Positions 53,414 through 63,663 of a DNA stretch of 64,000 nt are shown piece after piece. This DNA comes from Halopelagius inordinatus (lineage in GTDB: Archaea; Halobacteriota; Halobacteria; Halobacteriales; Haloferacaceae), in the NCBI RefSeq assembly GCF_900113245.1, contig NZ_FOOQ01000001.1, forward strand, positions 496,001 to 560,000. Direction: 5' to 3'. Positions within the stretch are counted from its first letter, which is position 1; each line of letters starts with the position of its first letter. Both the position numbers and the translations under genes were made by a program. The notes under the pieces were generated by a model that had not been told where the DNA came from, did not search any database, and worked only from the letters and a program-made list of their open reading frames with translations.

Positions 53414-54022
53414 ATGATACTCTCGGACGCGGACATCCTCGAACGCTTGGGAGATGGTGACCTCGTGGTCGAACCGATAGACGACGTCGATATGCAGGTC
53501 CAACCGGCGAGCATCGACCTCCGACTCGGCTCCGAGTTCTTGGAGTTCCAACGGACGAACATCTCGTGTATCCACCCGAACCGCGAGGACGAAGTGAGCA
53601 AGTACGTCACCGAGACGTACGTAGAGGAGGGCGAGGAGTTCATCCTGCACCCCGGCGACTTCGTCCTCGGAACGACGAAGGAGCGAGTCGAGATTCCCGA
53701 CGACTTGTTGGCGACGGTCGAGGGCCGGTCCTCGTTGGGCCGTCTGGCCATCGTCATCCACGCCACCGCGGGTATCGTCGACCCCGGGTACAACGGTCAG
53801 ATAACGCTCGAACTGTCGAATCTCGGCACCGCGCCCGTCGCTCTCACGCCGGGAATGCGCGTCTCGCAACTCGTCTTCACCGAACTGAAACGGCCCGCCG
53901 ACCGGCCGTACGGTTCCGACCGCGGGTCGAAGTACCAGAACCAAGCGGGGCCGCAGGCCTCCCGAATCGGCGACGACCCCGAGTTCGTCGCCGCCAGAGA
54001 ACGGGACGGGGACGACCGATGA
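53414..54022 (+). CDS. dcd: dCTP deaminase
   Basis: The enzyme deaminates dCTP to dUTP (some archaeal forms also release pyrophosphate). The 202-residue protein has the trimeric dUTPase-like fold: [25 protein letters not shown] with catalytic Ser/Arg and the later [10 protein letters not shown] with the Glu. C-terminal [12 protein letters not shown] closes over substrate. It overlaps thiR (ATGA) and shares its promoter. High confidence for dCTP deaminase; bifunctional deaminase/diphosphatase cannot be excluded. Confidence 0.93.
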
Positions 54023-54924
54023 GGTTCGTCGAAGAGATAGTCGTAGAGGAGTTCCTCCCGACGTTCCGGTCGATGCTCGCGGGGGACCTCCGCGAACGCG
54101 GACTCACCCAACGGGAGGTGGCGGACGCCCTCGGAATCAGCCAGAGCGCGGTTTCGAAGTACGCCCACGGCGAGGTGGGCCGCCGCGAGGAGTTCCTCGA
54201 AGACGAACGCGTCGTCGAACTCGTGGACAGAATCGGAGAGGGACTCGCGACGGGCGACATGACGCCGGTGCAGGCCCTCGTGGAGGCGGAAGTGCTCGTC
54301 CGCCGCCTCGAACAGGGGGACCTGCTGGCGACGATGCACGAAGAAGAGATGCCCGGACTCGCCGAGTACGACGGCGACCTGAGCGTCCACGACCCCGATA
54401 GCGGCCTCCGGACCGCGGAACGCGTCCGGTCGTCGGTTCGCCGCGCCCTGCGTACCCTGACGAACGCCAGCGGATTCGCCGGTCTGATTCCGAACGTCGG
54501 GTCGAACCTCGTCGAGTGCCTGCCGGACGCGGCGGGGATCGAAGACATCGCCGGCGTCCCCGGCCGAATCTTCGACGTGAAGGGTCGCGCGACGGTGCCG
54601 AACGACCCCGAGTTCGGCGTCAGCGAACACGCCGCCTCGGTCCTCCTCGAGGCGCGCCGCGGCGGCGCGGACGTCAGCGCCGCGTTGAACGTCCGGTACG
54701 ACCCCGACGTCGTCTCGGCGCTGGAGTCGGCGGGCCACACCGCAATCGAGTTCGACCCCGAGGCCGAGGACCCAATCGTCGCCGCCGTCGAAGACTGCGA
54801 GAACCCCACGGAGACGTTCGTCCTCTATCAGACGGGCGGGTTCGGCATCGAGGCCATAACGTACATCCTCGGCCCCGACGCACAGACGGTCGCACGGACC
54901 GTTCGCGACACGCTCTTGGGGTGA
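54019..54924 (+). CDS. thiR: ThiR-like regulator: HTH fused to ThiN thiamine-phosphate synthase domain
   Basis: The 301-residue protein has an N-terminal HTH domain (about 20-65; [20 protein letters not shown]) and a C-terminal ThiN-type domain (about 130-300) as in archaeal thiamine-phosphate synthases ([34 protein letters not shown]). Archaeal HTH-ThiN fusions are known regulators of thiamine genes (ThiR). The nearby thi4 gene is the obvious target. ATG 54019 overlaps dcd by four bases. It could retain synthase activity; regulation is the better-supported role. Confidence 0.88.
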
Positions 54925-54958
54925 CCCGGCGCGAACGGAGTCGTCGAACGACCCGCTC

Positions 54959-55654
54959 ATGAGAGACGGAACCGACGCGACGCAGGAGTTCTACTCGCGG
55001 TACGCGAGACTGTACGACCTCATCGCCCGACGGACGCCGGGCGTCACCGGTCTCCGAGAGAGCGTCGCCGACGCTCTCGACCCGAAACGGGGCGACGTGG
55101 TCGTCGATATGGGCTGCGGCACCGGCGCGAACTTCCCGTACCTCCGCGAACGCGTCGGACCGTCGGGAACCGTCGTCGGCGTCGACTTCACGCCGGGCGT
55201 CCTCGCCGTCGCCCGCGACAGAATCGACGGCGAGGGGTGGGAGAACGTCCACGTCGTCCGCGGCGACGCGACGCGCCCGCCCGTCGGCGAGGCCGACGCC
55301 GTCCTCGCGACGTTCGTCTCGGGGATGCTCGCTGACCCCGCCGCCGCCGTCCGGACGTGGGCGGAACTCGTCGGCCCCGACGGGCGACTCGCGGTGGGCG
55401 ATTTGGGCCGGAGCACGTCTCCTCTCGGGCGACCGCTGAACGCCGCCTTCGAGAGTCTCGTCCGCGCCTCCACGCCCCCCGGTCCGGGGCGGCGGATGGA
55501 GTCGCCGTCGGCGCTGTTAGACGAGAGACTCGTCGCCGCCCACTCGGAACTCGAACGCCTCTGTACCGACGTTCGGCGCGACGTCCGCGCACTCGGGTTC
55601 GCGCGGGTCCGCGGCGGAACCGTCGGCGACGGACCGAACCGCGGCGGAACGTGA
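54959..55654 (+). CDS. Class I SAM-dependent methyltransferase
   Basis: The 231-residue protein has a Rossmann-like methyltransferase core: motif I VVVDMGCGTGANFPYL, motif II acid in VVGVDFTPGV, and VVRGDATRPP before the substrate side. The C-terminal third is divergent. Length and order resemble small-molecule (ubiE-like) methyltransferases. The substrate is unknown; the gene lies 34 bases after thiR and before thi4 on the opposite strand. Confidence 0.9.
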   Translation: MRDGTDATQEFYSRYARLYDLIARRTPGVTGLRESVADALDPKRGDVVVDMGCGTGANFPYLRERVGPSGTVVGVDFTPGVLAVARDRIDGEGWENVHVVRGDATRPPVGEADAVLATFVSGMLADPAAAVRTWAELVGPDGRLAVGDLGRSTSPLGRPLNAAFESLVRASTPPGPGRRMESPSALLDERLVAAHSELERLCTDVRRDVRALGFARVRGGTVGDGPNRGGT

Positions 55655-55735
55655 CCCGTCGAAAAGAGGGGGAGGGAGGGCGTCTCTCGCGTCAGTCGGG
55701 GAGTTCGGGCCTCGGTTGGAGACGGGCGAGACGTC

Positions 55736-56677
55736 TCAGTCGTCGGCGGGCGAGGGCGTCGCGCCGTACTCGACCGCCGGGGCTTCGCGTCCCAGTTCGT
55801 CGAGGCAGGATTGGGCCGCGCGCTTGCCCGAGAGGAGCATCGCGCCGAACGTCGGTCCCATCCGCGGGAGGCCGTGGGCGGTGGCGACGGCCATCCCGGA
55901 AGCGACGACGCCGGGGTGGACGACACCGGTGTGTTCGACGACGGCGTCCTCGCTTTTTCCGACCCACATCGAGTCGTGACCGGGCGAGTCGTGACCGGGC
56001 GCGCCGTACTCGCCCTCGTCGGTCTGGTCCATCCCGGTGTTGTGTTCTTGCGCGTGTTCGATGCCCGGCGCGTCGAGTGCGCCGCGTTCCGCGAGTTTCG
56101 AGACGACCACGGCGTCGTGACCCGTCGCGTCGAGGACGAGGTCGGATTCGACGGCGACGGGGTCCACGCAGGTCAGTTCCCGCGGCAGGGCGTGGACGGG
56201 CGTCCAGTTGAGGACGACGCCGCCGACGCGGTGGTCCTCGCGGACGACGATGTCGGTGAACTCCGTCATGTTCTGGACCGTCGCGCCCGCGTCGCAGGCG
56301 GCCTTTATCAGCCCTGAACAGGCGTGCGGGCCGTCCGCGACGTACAGACCCTCGGCTTCCTCGCTCTCGGTGTAGGGGACGTCGAGTTCGTCGAGTACCT
56401 CTTGGGCCGGGTCCCGGACGGTCACCTTGTTCATGAGAAAACCGCCGAGCCAGAACCCGCCGCCGAGGTAGTTGTTCTTCTCGACGATGGTCACGTCCAC
56501 GTCGCGTTCGGCGAGTTCCTTCGCCGCGACCAGACCCGAGGGACCGCCGCCGACGACGATTACCTCCGTGTCGATTCTGTCGAGGAACTCCTCGGTCCAG
56601 TCGGACGCTATCGCTCGTGTGACCTGCGACTCGCTCACGTCCGCGAACCCGTCGAAGTCTGCCATGCTGTCGGACAT
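55736..56677 (-). CDS. thi4: Thiamine thiazole synthase Thi4, cysteine-type
   Basis: Thi4 makes the thiazole moiety of thiamine from NAD and glycine. The 313-residue protein has the FAD/NAD-binding [18 protein letters not shown], and [17 protein letters not shown]. The Cys in RELTCVDPV (Cys170 with the ATG 56677 start) corresponds to the sulfur-donating, single-turnover Cys of yeast Thi4 and the essential Cys of the Haloferax enzyme; methanogen enzymes have His there. A GHDSP pair is a perfect 15-base tandem duplication (55971-56000). Promoter region has a GGTAGTACC palindrome. ATG 56677 is chosen; ATG 56665 and GTG 56695 are alternatives. Confidence 0.92.
55971..56000. repeat. Perfect 15-base tandem duplication inside thi4
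   Basis: GAGTCGTGACCGGGC occurs twice in a row and encodes two GHDSP units. It keeps frame, so the protein remains intact. Confidence 0.8.
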
Positions 56678-56680
56678 ATC

Positions 56681-56725
56681 CCTAGGTAGTACCACCGAGT
56701 GTTATAACTGTGGGGGTCCGTCGGG
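56681..56725. promoter_or_regulatory. thi4 promoter with palindromic candidate operator
   Basis: GGTAGTACC (56685-56693) is a perfect nine-base palindrome, next to CCTAGG. Further upstream on the minus strand, CAGTTATAACACT is a TATA region. Their position suggests control of thi4 by the ThiR-like regulator; this is inference. Confidence 0.4.
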
Positions 56726-56791: not shown

Positions 56792-58609
56792 ATGTCGTAC
56801 GTCGTCAAGATGCCCAAGTTAGGGTTGGAGATGGATTCCGGAACTATCGTCGAGTGGTACGTAGAGGAAGGTGGCGAGGTGGAGGAAGACGCGACAATCG
56901 CCGAGATAGAGTCCGAGAAGACGACGGCGGAGATAGACGCACGGGAGTCGGGCGTCCTCAGATACGTCGGCGTCGAGGAGGGGGGGTCCGCCCCGCCGGG
57001 TGCCGCCCTCGCCGTCGTCGCGGGTCCAGAGGAGGACATCTCCGCTCTGAAATCCGAGTTCGATGGGGACGAACCCGCCGACGAAGGGGCCGAGACGGAC
57101 GAACCGAGCGCCGAATCCGGGTCCGACGCGGGGGCGACGACGACGGAATCCGGGTCCGGTTCGAGTGCCGGTGGTGGCGGCGGGTCCGGTGACGTGAAAG
57201 CCAGTCCGCGAGCCAAAAAGCGCGCCGACGAACTGGACGTCGACCTCTCGACGGTGGAGGGGTCGGGTCCGGGCGGGGCGATTACCGAAGACGACGTGGA
57301 AGCCGCGGGGTCGGCCGGGTCCGGGGACGTGAAAGCCAGCCCGCGGGCGAAAAAGCGCGCGGACGAACTCGGCGTGACGCTCGCGGGCGTCGAGGGGTCG
57401 GGTCCGGGCGGGGCGATAACCGAAGACGACGTGGAGGCGGCGGCCGAGTCCGGAGGCGGCGCGGCGACTGCGACCGGCGACGCCGGACCGGCCGTCGCGG
57501 AGGAACGGCCGCTCTCGGGAATGCGCCGCACCATCGCCGACCGACTCGGGCAGAGTTACCGCGAGTCCGTCCACGTCACCGTCCACCGGACGACGAACGC
57601 GGAGGCGGCCCTCGCCGCCGCGGACGCCGCAGAGGAGCAACTCGGCGCGGACGTGTCGCTGACGGACGTGCTGTTGAAGGCGCTTTCTGCGACGCTCGCG
57701 GACCATCCCGAGTTCAACGCCACGTTCGAGGACGAAACCCACCGCCTCCACGAGGACCACAACATCTGCGTCGCCGTGGACGTAGACGAGGGATTGCTCG
57801 CGCCCGTCGTCCGCGGCGTCGATTCGCTCTCGCTTTCGGACCTCTCCGACCGTCGCCGGGAGGTGACGCGGCGCGTCCTCGACGGCGACTTCTCGATGGA
57901 CGACCTGTCGGGCGGGACGTTCACCGTCTCGAACCTCGGCGTCCTCGGCGTCGAGTCGTTCGACCCCATCATCAACCCACCGCAGATAGCCATCCTCGGC
58001 GTCAACGCCCTCGAAGAGCGAGTCGTCCCCGACGGCTCCGGGGAGTTCACCACCCGCCGGATGCTCCCCTTGGACCTCTCTTTCGACCACCGCATCGTCG
58101 ACGGCGCGGACGCGGCGCGCTTCATGGCCACTCTGTCGGACCACCTCGAAGACCCGTGGCCGCTTTTAGACGGCGTGGAGGCGGCCGAAGCCGAATCGGA
58201 GGCGGTGAAACTCCCGAACGCGGCGGCGACGGCGTCCGTCGGGCCCGACCTGAAAGGGACCGTCGAGGCGGGCTCTTTCGAGTACGATTTCGACGTGACG
58301 GAGGAGTTCGGCGGCGGCACCGCGCCGACGCCCGTCGACCTGTTCGTCAGTTCCTTCGCGGCCTGTCTGTCGGCGAGCATCGGCGTTCAAGCGGAGATCC
58401 GCGACGTGGAGATGCGGAACGTCACGGTGAACGCGGAGGCGACGCCTCCCGAGGGGTCCGTCGAGTCCCTCTCTCTGAACGTGACGCTCGACACCGACGC
58501 GGACGAGGAGACTCTCGAACGCATCGTGCGGAACGGCGAACGGACCTGCCACGTCAACGAACTGCTCCGCGAGGACCTTCCCGTCTCCCTCGACTGGCGG
58601 CGGGCGTAG
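56792..58609 (+). CDS. Dihydrolipoamide acyltransferase (E2) fused to an OsmC domain
   Basis: This 605-residue protein would be the core of a 2-oxoacid or acetoin dehydrogenase. Order: lipoyl domain (1-78, lipoyl Lys43 in IESEKTTAEI), acidic linker, two nearly identical peripheral subunit-binding domains (132-171 and 177-216), the catalytic domain (about 235-460) with His433 and Asp437 in FDHRIVDG, then an OsmC-fold domain (about 473-601) with Cys525 (FAACLSAS) and Cys586 (RTCHVNE), the usual peroxidatic/resolving positions. E2 proteins normally end after the catalytic domain. OsmC/Ohr enzymes use lipoyl dithiols as reductant, so the fusion is chemically sensible. Matching E1 genes lie at 61598-63663. 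Confidence 0.88.
   Translation: MSYVVKMPKLGLEMDSGTIVEWYVEEGGEVEEDATIAEIESEKTTAEIDARESGVLRYVGVEEGGSAPPGAALAVVAGPEEDISALKSEFDGDEPADEGAETDEPSAESGSDAGATTTESGSGSSAGGGGGSGDVKASPRAKKRADELDVDLSTVEGSGPGGAITEDDVEAAGSAGSGDVKASPRAKKRADELGVTLAGVEGSGPGGAITEDDVEAAAESGGGAATATGDAGPAVAEERPLSGMRRTIADRLGQSYRESVHVTVHRTTNAEAALAAADAAEEQLGADVSLTDVLLKALSATLADHPEFNATFEDETHRLHEDHNICVAVDVDEGLLAPVVRGVDSLSLSDLSDRRREVTRRVLDGDFSMDDLSGGTFTVSNLGVLGVESFDPIINPPQIAILGVNALEERVVPDGSGEFTTRRMLPLDLSFDHRIVDGADAARFMATLSDHLEDPWPLLDGVEAAEAESEAVKLPNAAATASVGPDLKGTVEAGSFEYDFDVTEEFGGGTAPTPVDLFVSSFAACLSASIGVQAEIRDVEMRNVTVNAEATPPEGSVESLSLNVTLDTDADEETLERIVRNGERTCHVNELLREDLPVSLDWRRA
57185..57439. repeat. Direct repeat encoding two subunit-binding domains
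   Basis: About 120 bases (57185-57304) recur at 57320-57439 with high identity, each encoding the SGDVKASPRAKKRADEL... binding domain. This is a recent internal duplication. Confidence 0.8.
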
Positions 58610-58619
58610 TCGTCGGGCG

Positions 58620-58973
58620 TCACTCGGAGACCGAGGCCAGGAGGCCGTTTCGGGCCCCGCGCCATCCGTAGTGCAGAACGCCGACGCCGCCGACGACGAC
58701 GGCGGCGGCGGCGACGGCGGTCACGTTCCCCGTGGCGACGACGGTGAGTCCGAACGCCACGAACGCGGCGGCCTGAAGCAGGTGGTACGCCACCGTTCCG
58801 CCGAACGGTCGCAGGCCCCGGGCCACGAGTACGACCGAGAGGAGGACGAGGGCGACGGCGGCGAGCGGAGACGGACGGTAGTAGCCGATACCGACAGTCA
58901 CCGCCGCGAGAATGGCGACGGCGGCACCCGGCGCGGCCTCGGCGGGGGACACCGACTCGACGAGAGAGGGCAT
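58620..58973 (-). CDS. Small membrane protein, four predicted helices
   Basis: The 117-residue protein is hydrophobic, with about four helices (near 14-30, 35-50, 60-80, 84-105) and few polar residues, no known motif. The frame continues upstream beyond ATG 58973, but the extension is not protein-like. It lies in the space between the E2 gene and a lipoprotein gene and is transcribed alone. Function unknown. Confidence 0.65.
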   Translation of the reverse strand: MPSLVESVSPAEAAPGAAVAILAAVTVGIGYYRPSPLAAVALVLLSVVLVARGLRPFGGTVAYHLLQAAAFVAFGLTVVATGNVTAVAAAAVVVGGVGVLHYGWRGARNGLLASVSE

Positions 58974-59071
58974 ACGCCGAGATGCGGACGGCCGCGACAA
59001 AAACGTACGTCCCCCGCCGACTGCGCGTCGAACCGGAGAGGCGAAAGCGTCTCTTTGAGCCTCCTGAAAGC

Positions 59072-59079
59072 ACTTTATG
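59072..59079 (+). promoter_or_regulatory. TATA box of the lipoprotein gene
   Basis: ACTTTATG about 26 bases before ATG 59101, leaderless spacing. Confidence 0.5.
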
Positions 59080-59100
59080 CGGACCGGCGAACGGTCGCGT

Positions 59101-59979
59101 ATGAACCGCCGACAGATGCTCGCGTTCTGCGGCCTCTGTGCCTCGGGTACCGCGGGCTGTCTCTCCGGGACGCCGTCACGACCGGGAAGCGGAGCCGAGG
59201 AGACGACGGCAGACGACGGAACCGAGACGACGGCAGACGGCCCCGACGAGACGCCTCCGGCCGACGGCGTCGCAGTCGACGATATCGCCGTCCGGAAGGC
59301 GGTCAGATACGAGTCGTCGATGGGGTCCGGCGGCGTCCTCGCCGTCGAGGGGCGACAGTACGTCGTCGCGTCCGTGCGCGCCCCCGGCGACGCTTCGGCG
59401 TCCGACTTCGCCTTTCGGACCGACTCCGAGTCGTGGCACCCGGGGCTTTCGGACACCGTCGGAGCGAGAAACGTCTCCGTCGCGGGCCGGGAGGGCGGCC
59501 CCGTCGGCAGAGGGTTCGGCGGCGACGACCGGTCGTATCTCGCCTTCGAGGTGCCGTCTCCGCTGTCGGCCTCGAACCCCCGGATTCGGTTCGAGTCGGG
59601 CGATTCGGAGTGGCCGCTTCCCGTCGAGGAACGGGTCCGACTCGACGCGCCCGCGCCGCGGTTCGAACTCGACTCCGTGGACGCGCCCGAGGAAGTGTCG
59701 CAGGGCGAGACGATGTCGGTTTCGCTGACCGCGACGAACGTCTCCGATACCGACGGCCGGTTTCTCGCGGCCGTCTACTGGCCGACGGACGTGATAGCCG
59801 ACGACGACGAATCGCACGTCATCGAACGGGCCGTCGCCGCAGGCGACGAGATGACGGCGTCGGTGGATATCGACACCTCGTACACGACGAACGAGGACGG
59901 ACCGGTGACGCTGTCGGTTCGCGGTCACGTCTCCGCGGAACGCGATGTTCGGGTGCGGAACGCCTCGACGCCGAGTTAG
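59101..59979 (+). CDS. Tat-type lipoprotein of unknown function
   Basis: The 292-residue protein begins MNRRQMLAFCGLCASGTAGCLSG, a twin-Arg-like signal ending in a lipobox (AGC), so it is probably a membrane-anchored lipoprotein outside the cell. The next 35 residues are Thr/Glu-rich linker (TTADDGTETTADG). The remainder is a beta-rich domain of about 220 residues with no Cys and no recognised family, resembling haloarchaeal Ig-like or solute-binding exodomains. ATG 59101 is set by signal and TATA box. Function unknown. Confidence 0.75.
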   Translation: MNRRQMLAFCGLCASGTAGCLSGTPSRPGSGAEETTADDGTETTADGPDETPPADGVAVDDIAVRKAVRYESSMGSGGVLAVEGRQYVVASVRAPGDASASDFAFRTDSESWHPGLSDTVGARNVSVAGREGGPVGRGFGGDDRSYLAFEVPSPLSASNPRIRFESGDSEWPLPVEERVRLDAPAPRFELDSVDAPEEVSQGETMSVSLTATNVSDTDGRFLAAVYWPTDVIADDDESHVIERAVAAGDEMTASVDIDTSYTTNEDGPVTLSVRGHVSAERDVRVRNASTPS

Positions 59980-59997: not shown

Positions 59998-60498
59998 CTA
60001 CGGATACTGCTCGTCCGGTTCCCCCAACGCGTCGACGTTCGACGCCGTCTCGAAGACGACGCCGTTCATCTCGTCTTCGGTGTCGAAGTACCAGTACGGC
60101 GTCTCGTCGTAGACGCCGCTTTGGACGACGGGCATCCCGGCGTCCTCGAACGCTTCGACGACCGACTCCGGGTCGTCGAACGCGAAGCAGGCGACGTGGT
60201 GGAGGCCCTCGCCGTGTTCTTCTAAGTGTTCGGTGTAGAGGCTCTCGCCTTCCAACGGTTCGATGAGTTCTATCATCGTCCCGCCCACGTCGGCGAGTGC
60301 GAGCGTCATCGAGTAGTCGTGTTCCTCCCCGCGGAACGTGGTGTCGTGAAGCGTCGGCGGTTCGAAGTGGTATATCTGCCACGGACCGACGCCGAGGACG
60401 CCGCCGAAGCGGTCCATCCCGTCTTCGATGTCTTCGACGACGAACGCGACTTGGCTTATCTCCGGCACGTCGATTCCGAGGTCGGGTATCGAGTCCAT
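59998..60498 (-). CDS. VOC-superfamily protein, methylmalonyl-CoA epimerase-like
   Basis: The 166-residue protein has two VOC modules: ISQVAFVVEDIEDGMDRFGGVLGVGPW and EGLHHVACFAFDDPESVVEAF, with His/Glu candidates for metal binding (HHV and the IELIEP Glu). It resembles methylmalonyl-CoA epimerase or glyoxalase I domains. Substrate unknown. On the minus strand GAGTATATCAC (60525-60532) lies about 30 bases before ATG 60498. Confidence 0.82.
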   Translation of the reverse strand: MDSIPDLGIDVPEISQVAFVVEDIEDGMDRFGGVLGVGPWQIYHFEPPTLHDTTFRGEEHDYSMTLALADVGGTMIELIEPLEGESLYTEHLEEHGEGLHHVACFAFDDPESVVEAFEDAGMPVVQSGVYDETPYWYFDTEDEMNGVVFETASNVDALGEPDEQYP

Positions 60499-60597: not shown

Positions 60598-61596
60598 TCA
60601 GCGTTCGACGAAGAACCCCGCCTCCGCGGCGGCGGCGAGTGCGGCGTCCACGTCCACGACTTTGGGTCCGTCGTCGACGGCGCGAATCGCGATTTCGGCG
60701 TCGCGGACTTCGAGTTCCCGTTCGCCGTCCGCGCTGACGACGGCCGTCTCGACTTCGAAGAGAAAGGGCTCTCCGGCGTCGAGGCGGCGGCAGTCGTCGA
60801 CGCCGAGTTCCGAGACGACGCCCGGAACGGTGACGGCACGGACGCGGCGCGTCGCCTCCTCTGCGGGCGCGAACCGGACGCCGACGCCGCCGGGGTCGTC
60901 GGGTTCGACGCGGTGGACGGTCCCCGCCGCGCCCGAGATACCTATCTCGCCGGGGGCCGCCCGGGAGGCGACGCCGCCGAGGAGACTCCCCGCGTCCAAC
61001 AGGGCCCGCGTTCCGACGAACGCCTCGTCTACGACGCCGACGGTGGCGAGGCCCGTCACCGTCTCTCGTTTGGTGCGTCCGTCCACCTGGGCGACGGCGG
61101 TTCCGTGCCGGTAACTGACGGCGTCTGCGTCCGCCGCACCGTCGGCGACGACTGCCGCGGCCATCCCCGCGACGGTGCCGTCCACCGCCGTCGGGACGAC
61201 GTTGTTCGTCCCGGTGGAGACGGACACCACGGGCACGTCGCCGACGTTCGTCCCCACGTCGCGGTTCGTCCCGTCGCCGCCGAGGACGACGACGGCGTCG
61301 GCCACCTCTCGGAACCGGGCGGCCGCGAGGCGCGTGTCGCGGGGGCCTCCCGTCGGTTCGATGCCGAGGAGTCCGGCCTCGACGTCGTCGGAGGCCGAGG
61401 CGACGACCTGGTCCGCGATGCCGGAGGTGTCGGGCATCACCACCACCTCCGCGTCGTCTACGACGCCGACACCCGCGAGGACGCACTCTGCGGTCCGTCG
61501 CTTGGCGTAGTTGTTACTGACGCTCGCCCCGCCCGTGAGACGGCGGATGTCGCGCCCCGCCGCGGGGTTGACGACCAGTCCGACTCGGGCGGTCAC
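60598..61596 (-). CDS. acoX: AcoX-like ATP-NAD kinase-fold protein
   Basis: The 332-residue protein has the NAD/diacylglycerol kinase fold: VVVLGGDGTNRDV is the GGDGT motif, followed by VSTGTNN. AcoX proteins accompany acetoin dehydrogenase genes in bacteria; their reaction is not established, and this one is encoded directly after E1 beta (one base gap). NAD kinase is the alternative, but the operon points to AcoX. Start is GTG 61596. The C-terminal 100 residues are beta-rich as in the family. It is the last gene of acoABX order. Confidence 0.85.
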   Translation of the reverse strand: MTARVGLVVNPAAGRDIRRLTGGASVSNNYAKRRTAECVLAGVGVVDDAEVVVMPDTSGIADQVVASASDDVEAGLLGIEPTGGPRDTRLAAARFREVADAVVVLGGDGTNRDVGTNVGDVPVVSVSTGTNNVVPTAVDGTVAGMAAAVVADGAADADAVSYRHGTAVAQVDGRTKRETVTGLATVGVVDEAFVGTRALLDAGSLLGGVASRAAPGEIGISGAAGTVHRVEPDDPGGVGVRFAPAEEATRRVRAVTVPGVVSELGVDDCRRLDAGEPFLFEVETAVVSADGERELEVRDAEIAIRAVDDGPKVVDVDAALAAAAEAGFFVER

Positions 61597-61597
61597 T

Positions 61598-62608
61598 CTA
61601 CACCAGTTTCTCGACTGCGGTCCGCACGTCCTCCGCGGACGGTATCACTTCCTGTTCCAGTCCCGGACTGAACGGGATGTGGGTGTCGGCGACGCCGACG
61701 CGCATCGGCGGCGCGTCGAGACTGTAGAACCCGTCCTCCATGACGCGGGCCATCACTTCGGCGTGCGTGCCGTACGAGAGGGGACTCTCGTCTGCGACGA
61801 CGAGGCGTCCGGTCTTCTCGACGCTCTCGACCAGCGTATCGGTGTCGAGGGGGTAGAGCGACTGGAGGTCGATGACCTCGATGCTCGCTTGACCCGCCAT
61901 CTCTTCTGCGAGGTCGAGCGATTCACCGACCATGCGCTGGGTGGCGACGACCGTCACGTCGTCGCCCTCGCGTTCGACGCTCGCCTCCCCGAGAGGGATG
62001 GTGTAGTTCGGGTCGGTCGGCACCTCGCCCTCCTGTTCGTATATCATCTTGTTCTCGAAGAAGAACACCGGGTCGTCCGAGCGAATGGCCGACTTCAGAA
62101 GGCCCTTCGCCGCCCGCGGCGTGCCCGGTGCGACGGCGAGGAGGCCCGGGAAGTGCGCGAACCACGTGTGGAGGGTGCCCGAGTGTTGACTCGCCGCACC
62201 CATCCCGCCGCCCTCCGTGGTGCGGACGGTGATGGGCATCTCCGTCTTCCCGCCGAACATGTACCGCATCTTCGCCATCTGGTTGATTATCTGCTCGGAG
62301 GCGACGCCGAGGAAATCGGAGAACATTATCTCGACGACGGGGCGCATCCCCGTCGCCGCCGCGCCGATGCCCGCGCCGGTGAACCCGGCCTCGCTTATCG
62401 GCGTGTCGCGGATGCGTTTCTCGCCGAACTCGTCGACGAGGCCGTCCGTCACGTTGAACACGCCGCCGAACGTGCCGACGTCCTCGCCCATGACGAAGAC
62501 GTTCTCGTCGTCTTGCATCTCCTCGCGGAGTGCCGCCCTGATGGCCTCCCGCATCGTCATCGTCTCCGTCTGGTCTATGCTGTCGCCGGGTCGTGATTCA
62601 GTGCTCAT
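61598..62608 (-). CDS. acoB: 2-oxoacid/acetoin dehydrogenase E1 component, beta subunit
   Basis: The 336-residue protein is the E1 beta transketolase-like subunit: MREAIRAALREEM, GEDVGTFGGVF, DTPISEAGFTGAGIGAAATG and the conserved EIMFSDF. The C-terminal domain (about 200-335) closes the active site with alpha. It overlaps the acoA stop by four bases and is followed by acoX. Together with alpha and the E2 at 56792 it would decarboxylate a 2-oxoacid or cleave acetoin; which substrate cannot be told. High confidence for the family. Confidence 0.94.
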   Translation of the reverse strand: MSTESRPGDSIDQTETMTMREAIRAALREEMQDDENVFVMGEDVGTFGGVFNVTDGLVDEFGEKRIRDTPISEAGFTGAGIGAAATGMRPVVEIMFSDFLGVASEQIINQMAKMRYMFGGKTEMPITVRTTEGGGMGAASQHSGTLHTWFAHFPGLLAVAPGTPRAAKGLLKSAIRSDDPVFFFENKMIYEQEGEVPTDPNYTIPLGEASVEREGDDVTVVATQRMVGESLDLAEEMAGQASIEVIDLQSLYPLDTDTLVESVEKTGRLVVADESPLSYGTHAEVMARVMEDGFYSLDAPPMRVGVADTHIPFSPGLEQEVIPSAEDVRTAVEKLV

Positions 62609-63663
62609 CGGTTCTCACCTTCCTCGGACCGCGTCCGTCCGCCGTCCGTGGCGGTCGTCCGCGCAAATCGGTCGATATCCGGTACGTGCATCGAGAACAT
62701 GTCGTCGTACGCCTCGTGGGGGGCCGGGTCGTCGGCCGCTTGGGCCGCCTCGGTGGCCGCCTCTATACGGTCGTGAGCGTCCTCGCGCATCGACTCGAAC
62801 TCGTCTTGGTCGAGGGTGCCCGCTTCGAGGAGTCGGTTCTTGAAGTTCTGTATCGGGTCGCGGCCCTCGCGCCACTCGCCGATGTCGTCTTCGTCGCGGT
62901 ACGGTTGGTGGTCGCCTTCGAAGTGGCCGCGGTAGCGGTAGGTGTCGGCTTCGATGAACGTCGGACCGCCTCCGTCTGCGGCGCGTTCGCGGGCCTCTCT
63001 GACCGCCTCGTTCACCGCGACTACGTCCATCCCGTCGACGGTGAACCCGGGGATGTTGTACGCCTCGGCCGTCTCGCTCAGGTTTTCGACGTTGTGTTGC
63101 TTCTCGACGGGCGTCCCCTCGCCGAACTTGTTGTTCTCGACGAGGAAGACGGCCGGCAGGTCCCACGTCGCCGCGATGTTGATGGCCTCGTGTACCTGTC
63201 CTTGCGCCACCGCGCCGTCGCCGAAGAACGCGAGTGCGACCTGTCCGCTGTCGCGCATCTGCGCCGAGAGCGCGGCACCCGTCGCCAACGGCGGACCGGC
63301 GCCGACGATACCGTTCGCGCCGAGCATCCCGGCGTCGACGTCGGCGATGTGCATCGACCCGCCCTTGCCGTTGCAGTAGCCCTTTCGCTTGCCGTGGACT
63401 TCGGCCATCATCCCCTCCGGGTCGAGTCCCTTGGCGATGCAGTGACCGTGACCTCGGTGCGTGGAGGTGATGAGGTCGTCTTCCTCCAGGGCCGCCGCCG
63501 CGCCGACGCCGACCGCCTCCTCTCCGATGTAGAGGTGGACGAACCCCGGCACCTCGCCGTCCTCGAACAGTTCCCCGACCCTCTCGTCGAACGCCCGGAT
63601 GGTGAGCATGCGCTCGAGTATCTCGCGCTGCCCGTCCTCTGTGTCTATGTCTATAGATACCAT
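62605..63663 (-). CDS. acoA: 2-oxoacid/acetoin dehydrogenase E1 component, alpha subunit
   Basis: The 352-residue protein binds thiamine diphosphate: GDGAVAQGQVHEAINIA opens the TPP motif and ENNKFGEG ends it. Substrate-side segments are FVHLYIGEEAVGVG and STHRGHGHCIAKG with the catalytic His residues. Its C-terminus is a Thr/Arg-rich halophilic tail. The AcoX companion suggests acetoin dehydrogenase; pyruvate or branched-chain 2-oxoacid dehydrogenase are alternatives. On the minus strand CGTTTATG (about 63695-63702) lies about 34 bases upstream. No E3 gene is in the window. Confidence 0.94.
   Translation of the reverse strand: MVSIDIDTEDGQREILERMLTIRAFDERVGELFEDGEVPGFVHLYIGEEAVGVGAAAALEEDDLITSTHRGHGHCIAKGLDPEGMMAEVHGKRKGYCNGKGGSMHIADVDAGMLGANGIVGAGPPLATGAALSAQMRDSGQVALAFFGDGAVAQGQVHEAINIAATWDLPAVFLVENNKFGEGTPVEKQHNVENLSETAEAYNIPGFTVDGMDVVAVNEAVREARERAADGGGPTFIEADTYRYRGHFEGDHQPYRDEDDIGEWREGRDPIQNFKNRLLEAGTLDQDEFESMREDAHDRIEAATEAAQAADDPAPHEAYDDMFSMHVPDIDRFARTTATDGGRTRSEEGENR

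What the first reader, a model, noticed from the sequence alone, without database searches (positions are those of the whole stretch)
56792..58609. E2 acyltransferase fused to a complete OsmC peroxidase-type domain
The protein continues past the usual E2 C-terminus into an OsmC fold with both expected Cys (C525, C586). Seen in sequence: intact lipoyl Lys43, catalytic HRIVDG and OsmC cysteines. Known: OsmC/Ohr enzymes take electrons from lipoyl dithiols of E2 proteins. Inference: the lipoyl arm, reduced by E3, could reduce the fused OsmC domain, so the dehydrogenase core would remove organic peroxides formed near it.
Basis: partly seen in the sequence, partly recalled or inferred. Interest (0 to 1): 0.75.

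Follow-up and report, generated by a model that had tools for sequence, protein, structure and literature searches.

The report
E2 acyltransferase fused to OsmC domain

Summary
The fusion is real. ORF 56792-58609 (+, 605 aa) has a lipoyl domain, two tandem E3-binding domains, an acyltransferase domain with HRIVDG, a 20-residue linker and a full OsmC domain with C525 and C586. It is not an assembly error: 27 of 293 sampled genomes of the order carry such a fusion, plus named Natronococcus, Halobellus, Haloterrigena and Natrarchaeobius records. Most lie tail-to-tail with an E1alpha-E1beta-AcoX-like operon.

Both Cys are invariant (32/32) and lipoylated E2/E3 systems are known to reduce Ohr/OsmC. 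But this OsmC lacks the Ohr Arg19 and Glu51, whose mutation leaves only residual lipoamide-dependent peroxidase activity. It fits the YhfA class, whose biochemistry is unstudied. Also, in seven genomes, from at least three independent events, the AcoX-like gene, E3-binding and acyltransferase domains and the lipoyl lysine are all gone, while the OsmC part keeps both Cys and shows purifying selection. In two genomes it is a separate gene in the E1 operon. So a cis lipoyl arm is not required.

Best reading: a detachable YhfA-class thiol-redox module, probably fed by lipoyl dithiols when on the complex. I found no published description. A new variant of known parts.

The parts
56792..58609 (+). 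E2-OsmC fusion gene, 605 aa
   Evidence: ORF; Pfam; full-length relatives
56804..57016 (+). lipoyl domain (residues 5-75); lipoyl Lys43 at 56918-56920 in ESEK
   Evidence: PF00364 1.7e-14; K conserved 31/31 where the domain is present
57068..57190 (+). disordered linker, residues 93-133
   Evidence: AF2 pLDDT below 50
57194..57301 (+). E3/E1-binding domain, copy 1 (residues 135-170)
   Evidence: PF02817, two stretches
57329..57436 (+). E3/E1-binding domain, copy 2 (residues 180-215)
   Evidence: PF02817 second stretch; 128-nt direct repeat 57181-57308 / 57316-57443, 85% identical
57500..58165 (+). acyltransferase catalytic domain (residues 237-458), DHRIVDG intact
   Evidence: PF00198 4.6e-68; H433 32/32 and D437 30/32 in fusions
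58166..58225 (+). linker, 20 residues here, 17-46 in relatives
   Evidence: alignment; reduced pLDDT
58226..58606 (+). OsmC domain (residues 479-605)
   Evidence: PF02566 4e-15; AF2 pLDDT 91.8; Foldseek
58364..58366 (+). C525, equivalent of the peroxidatic Cys
   Evidence: invariant 32/32, 38/38 in the wider OsmC alignment
58547..58549 (+). C586, equivalent of the resolving Cys
   Evidence: invariant 32/32, 38/38
60598..61596 (-). AcoX-like protein (NAD-kinase N-terminal fold)
   Evidence: PF01513 2e-9; conserved neighbour
61598..62608 (-). E1 beta subunit
   Evidence: PF02779/PF02780; conserved neighbour
62605..63663 (-). E1 alpha subunit
   Evidence: PF00676 6e-94; conserved neighbour
59998..60498 (-). 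VOC/glyoxalase-fold gene at the end of the E1 operon
   Evidence: PF13669 7e-19; same place in several relatives

Best explanation
The C-terminal OsmC part is a YhfA-class two-Cys redox module tethered by a flexible linker to the acyltransferase core of an E1-E2 complex linked to an AcoX-like gene. C525 reacts with an oxidant, C586 resolves it as a disulfide, and the disulfide is reset by dihydrolipoyl groups. In the full-length protein these are likely the complex's own lipoyl arms; where the arm is lost, another donor such as a different lipoylated E2 or another thiol system must serve. The likely substrate is a thiol-reactive oxidant such as an organic hydroperoxide, but with less activation than in Ohr. 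The module is selected for its own redox activity and is kept when the acyltransferase, E3-binding domains and lipoyl Lys are lost. Shown: fusion, invariant Cys, fold (predicted and matched), loss of Arg/Glu, gene context, retention after loss of the rest. Inferred: redox cycle, electron donor, substrate.
For: Both Cys invariant in 32/32 fusions and in 38/38 aligned OsmC sequences. Fold supported by model and matches; the E. coli hypothetical protein 1ml8, which I identify as YhfA from prior knowledge, aligns at 2.0 A rmsd, TMt 0.87. Arg19 and Glu51 equivalents absent, the stated mark of the YhfA class (PMC8945050). Best NCBIfam OsmC model is OsmC_like_Se, below its cut-off, and a COG1765 (YhfA) OsmC-like selenoprotein with UxxT is listed (PMC9312934), which suggests a redox-active first Cys. 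E2/E3 lipoyl systems reduce Ohr and OsmC (PMC4486171, PMC8945050). Linkage to the AcoX-like gene 24/52 vs 13/241 genomes. Short forms nested in the fused clade at 3-4 places, OsmC dN/dS 0.18-0.42 and lower in every pair than in the N-terminal part (0.31-0.58). OsmC as a separate gene beside E1-E1-AcoX-E2 in two genomes, nested in the fused clade.
Against: The literature read here reports no measured activity for the YhfA class, so even a redox function is inferred. 28 of 52 AcoX-positive genomes manage without this OsmC clade. Retention of the Lys in full-length proteins may reflect only the E2 reaction. The trees have some open forks and long branches. No expression data.
Confidence: 0.5

Rival explanations
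1. One reading: a true Ohr-like organic peroxidase fed in cis by the lipoyl arm of the same E2, protecting the dehydrogenase core.
For: Lipoyl-dependent reduction of Ohr and OsmC is established (PMC4486171, PMC8945050). Lys43 and both Cys are intact here and in the other full-length fusions. Solved Ohr complexes with dihydrolipoamide are among the structural matches (6ebg, 6ebd).
Against: Arg19 and Glu51 equivalents missing; R19A and E51A leave only residual activity in XfOhr (PMC5962072). Seven derived forms lost the lipoyl Lys yet kept OsmC.
Confidence: 0.25
2. Redox switch: the OsmC disulfide senses oxidants and changes the activity or assembly of the E2 core rather than detoxifying.
For: Two invariant Cys without the peroxidase helper residues; tether to the catalytic core.
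Against: OsmC is kept where the E2 core has been deleted, so a role only in controlling that core does not explain retention.
Confidence: 0.1
3. Structural module: the OsmC fold, dimeric in its relatives, adds inter-trimer contacts to the E2 core.
For: It sits just after the E2 C-terminus, the region known (general knowledge) to make two-fold contacts; linker 17-46 aa.
Against: Invariance of both Cys; retention in proteins without an E2 core; unfused close relatives of the E2 exist.
Confidence: 0.08
4. Evolutionary passenger: a neutral fusion without a function of its own.
For: Patchy: fused/unfused state changes at least four times on the E2 tree; 28 of 52 AcoX-positive genomes lack it.
Against: Invariant Cys, purifying selection, and retention after loss of the rest of the protein.
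Confidence: 0.04

Closest known systems
Ohr / OsmC lipoyl-dependent peroxidases (e.g. X. fastidiosa Ohr, 1ZB8/4XX2; P. aeruginosa Ohr, 1N2F)
   Same: Fold, Cp/Cr cysteine pair, known functional link to lipoylated E2 and E3
   Different: Catalytic Arg and Glu absent here; free-standing proteins there, fused to E2 here
YhfA class of OsmC-fold proteins (COG1765; NCBIfam NF041052 OsmC_like_Se as nearest model; E. coli YhfA)
   Same: Two Cys kept, Arg and Glu missing
   Different: Described members are free-standing and without assigned function; here fused to or beside a lipoyl protein, and below the NF041052 cut-off
2-oxoacid dehydrogenase / acetoin dehydrogenase complexes with AcoX
   Same: E1alpha, E1beta, AcoX-like gene and an E2 with lipoyl, E3-binding and acyltransferase domains
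   Different: C-terminal OsmC; E3 not in the cluster; E1 operon and E2 gene convergent; substrate unknown
400-aa OsmC-domain protein of PDB 9wo1 ('Osmotically inducible protein C')
   Same: An OsmC domain at the C-terminal end of a longer protein (residues 273-390 of 400)
   Different: Only 400 aa, so not this architecture; its N-terminal part was not examined here

Membership tests
2-oxoacid dehydrogenase E2 | lipoyl domain with the lipoyl-Lys motif | tested here: met
   PF00364; ESEK with K43
2-oxoacid dehydrogenase E2 | E3/E1-binding domain | tested here: met
   PF02817, two copies
2-oxoacid dehydrogenase E2 | acyltransferase domain with HRxxDG | tested here: met
   PF00198 4.6e-68; DHRIVDG
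2-oxoacid dehydrogenase E2 | E1 partners nearby | tested here: met
   61598-63663, PF00676 and PF02779/PF02780
2-oxoacid dehydrogenase E2 | lipoylation in the cell | not testable with these tools
   two BPL_LplA_LipB-family genes and five Pyr_redox_dim genes exist in the genome; the modification itself is unseen
Ohr/OsmC peroxidase | OsmC fold | tested here: met
   PF02566; AF2 plus Foldseek
Ohr/OsmC peroxidase | Cp and Cr cysteines | tested here: met
   C525, C586 invariant
Ohr/OsmC peroxidase | catalytic Arg (Arg19 XfOhr) | tested here: not met
   Pro or Leu at the aligned site depending on the alignment; no Arg conserved in the loop
Ohr/OsmC peroxidase | catalytic Glu (Glu51 XfOhr) | tested here: not met
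   NPEQLF of Vibrio Ohr aligns to TPVDLF; V at the Glu site, D one later
Ohr/OsmC peroxidase | lipoyl-dependent hydroperoxide reduction | not testable with these tools
   needs purified protein
YhfA class | two Cys kept, Arg and Glu absent | tested here: met
   criterion from PMC8945050
NCBIfam NF041052 OsmC_like_Se | score above the curated cut-off | tested here: not met
   52.6 bits against a cut-off of 95
acetoin dehydrogenase system | AcoX gene with E1alpha/E1beta of the acetoin type | tested here: inconclusive
   NAD-kinase-fold gene next to E1 genes; 'AcoX-like' is my label from fold and context, no Aco-specific model passes its cut-off and the substrate is unknown

The most novel reading that the evidence does not exclude
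The OsmC domain is a second electron outlet of the complex: dihydrolipoyl groups are reoxidised by an oxidant through OsmC rather than only by E3 and NAD+, which would make part of the flux NAD-independent and give the unstudied YhfA class its first function as lipoyl-coupled oxidoreductases.
Probability: 0.12. Interest if true: 0.8.

Novelty: new variant of a known kind. Interest (0 to 1): 0.52.

Why it matters
The Ohr/OsmC family is known to be reduced by lipoylated E2 proteins in trans; here evolution has joined the two, repeatedly split or trimmed the joint, and kept the redox part. YhfA-class OsmC proteins are reported as biochemically uninvestigated (PMC8945050); these fusions, and the natural variants without a lipoyl Lys, give a direct way to ask whether they are lipoyl-coupled and what they reduce.

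Tried and rejected
Assembly artefact: rejected, the fusion recurs across genera. Chance Pfam match: rejected, fold model and crystal-structure matches. Closely similar OsmC outside the order: none at E <= 1e-11 in 295 genomes drawn across the phylum. Plasmid records: E2 matches only, none covering 80% of the query. Three phrasings in the paper library found no report of an E2-OsmC fusion. The idea that the short lipoyl-OsmC forms would prove cis electron transfer was dropped when all seven proved to lack the lipoyl Lys.

Full report
WHAT IS THERE. The ORF at 56792-58609 on the + strand encodes 605 aa. Pfam finds Biotin_lipoyl at 5-75, E3_binding in two copies, 2-oxoacid_dh at 237-458 and OsmC at 507-600, almost the whole profile. 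The two E3-binding copies come from a tandem duplication, 128 nt at 85% identity. A full-length model gives confident lipoyl, E3-binding, catalytic and OsmC domains with disordered stretches at 93-133 and 221-232 and lower confidence across 461-478. The OsmC domain alone models at mean pLDDT 91.8 and matches OsmC, Ohr and related crystal structures, among them 1ml8 at 2.0 A rmsd, which is E. coli YhfA to my knowledge.

NOT AN ARTEFACT. Full-length relatives occur in many genomes of the order and in named records of Halobellus rarus, several Natronococcus, Haloterrigena sp. H1 and Natrarchaeobius chitinivorans. In 293 genomes I count 27 with the E2-OsmC fusion, 7 with a short lipoyl-like-OsmC protein, 2 with OsmC as a separate gene in the operon and 1 other. 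Outside the order nothing this close turned up in a sample drawn across the phylum. The paper library gave no report of such a fusion; papers outside that library were not searched.

CONTEXT. The E1 genes (61598-63663, -) are followed by a NAD-kinase-fold gene that I call AcoX-like and a VOC-fold gene, and this block lies tail-to-tail with the E2-OsmC gene here and in most relatives. No E3 gene was seen in the cluster; five Pyr_redox_dim genes are elsewhere in the genome, and two BPL_LplA_LipB-family genes are present. The OsmC clade is found in 24 of 52 AcoX-positive and 13 of 241 AcoX-negative genomes (Fisher p 4e-12), not corrected for relatedness. Fused E2 in L041 and L065 sit beside E1 genes and an E3-like gene instead.

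ACTIVE SITE. Both Cys are invariant in 32 fusions and in a wider set of 38. The Ohr active site also needs an Arg and a Glu: R19A and E51A of X. fastidiosa Ohr keep only residual dihydrolipoamide-dependent activity (PMC5962072). Against Vibrio Ohr, NPEQLF aligns with TPVDLF, so Val is at the Glu site; the Arg site falls on Pro or Leu, and no Arg is conserved in that loop. The presence of the two Cys without Arg and Glu is the described mark of the YhfA class, whose biochemistry and role 'remain to be investigated' (PMC8945050). The best NCBIfam OsmC model is OsmC_like_Se, though below cut-off, and a selenoprotein form of a COG1765 (YhfA) OsmC-like protein is listed (PMC9312934), which speaks for redox chemistry at the first Cys.

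HISTORY. On the E2 tree the fused/unfused label needs at least four changes on well-supported branches. On the OsmC tree the seven short forms fall inside the fused clade with four changes of label, three forced by well-supported branches. Both trees carry warnings about long branches. The short proteins have a lipoyl-like domain (only a remnant in two, L103 and L104) directly joined to OsmC, without E3-binding or acyltransferase domains; all seven lack the lipoyl Lys and all keep both OsmC Cys. None of the seven genomes has the AcoX-like gene, against 24 of 29 genomes that keep an E2 with OsmC fused or beside it. OsmC dN/dS among the five short-form pairs is 0.18-0.42, in each pair lower than in the N-terminal part. 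In G240 and G249 the OsmC gene stands apart, next to E1alpha-E1beta-AcoX-E2, with an E2 from another clade.

MEANING. But the helper residues of the peroxidase are gone and the cis arm is dispensable. I therefore favour a redox module with its own selected role, lipoyl-fed when on the complex and otherwise fed in trans, with the substrate open. The cis-fed Ohr-like peroxidase remains the leading rival.

LIMITS. Genomes in the sample are unnamed and drawn from a larger group. I found no biochemical data for this clade. Bacteria were covered only by one pattern-limited scan. Counts of independent losses rest on a 145-column tree. The statistical tests treat genomes as independent, which they are not.

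Noticed in passing
L105:10780-12273 (-), L106, L044, L132-L142: Fourteen unfused E2 proteins form one clade, in AcoX-positive loci, that keep the lipoyl ESEK motif but have lost HRxxDG (YDxRxxG and the like): apparently acyltransferase-dead E2s still carried with E1 and AcoX.
   Followed up: partly
L107:8839-9573, L108:8569-9378, L109:9537-10337, L110:9591-10343, L102:9500-10315: Short proteins of a Lys-less lipoyl-like domain joined to OsmC; the N-terminal domain is retained without its lipoylation site, for no evident reason.
   Followed up: partly
L034 and L041: Fused E2-OsmC with HRVVNG in place of HRxxDG (catalytic Asp to Asn), in loci with E1 and E3-like genes and no AcoX.
   Followed up: no
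window 57181-57443: Tandem duplication of the E3-binding domain, 85% identical at DNA level; two copies are usual across the fused family.
   Followed up: partly
window 53998-56695: Thi4-family gene divergent from the E2 gene and a ThiN/HTH gene beyond it; Thi4 also lies beside the E2 gene in L059, L060 and L062. Thiamine diphosphate is the E1 cofactor.
   Followed up: no
L107:5716-8607: A two-subunit 2-oxoacid:ferredoxin oxidoreductase-like pair beside the short form in L107; genes of similar sizes lie beside several full fusions.
   Followed up: no
L105:12333-13286: An alpha/beta-hydrolase-like gene (HGGGW motif, read by eye) next to the acyltransferase-dead E2.
   Followed up: no
window 58620-59979: Two genes without any Pfam or NCBIfam match lie between the E2-OsmC gene and the E1 operon here but not in most relatives.
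   Followed up: no
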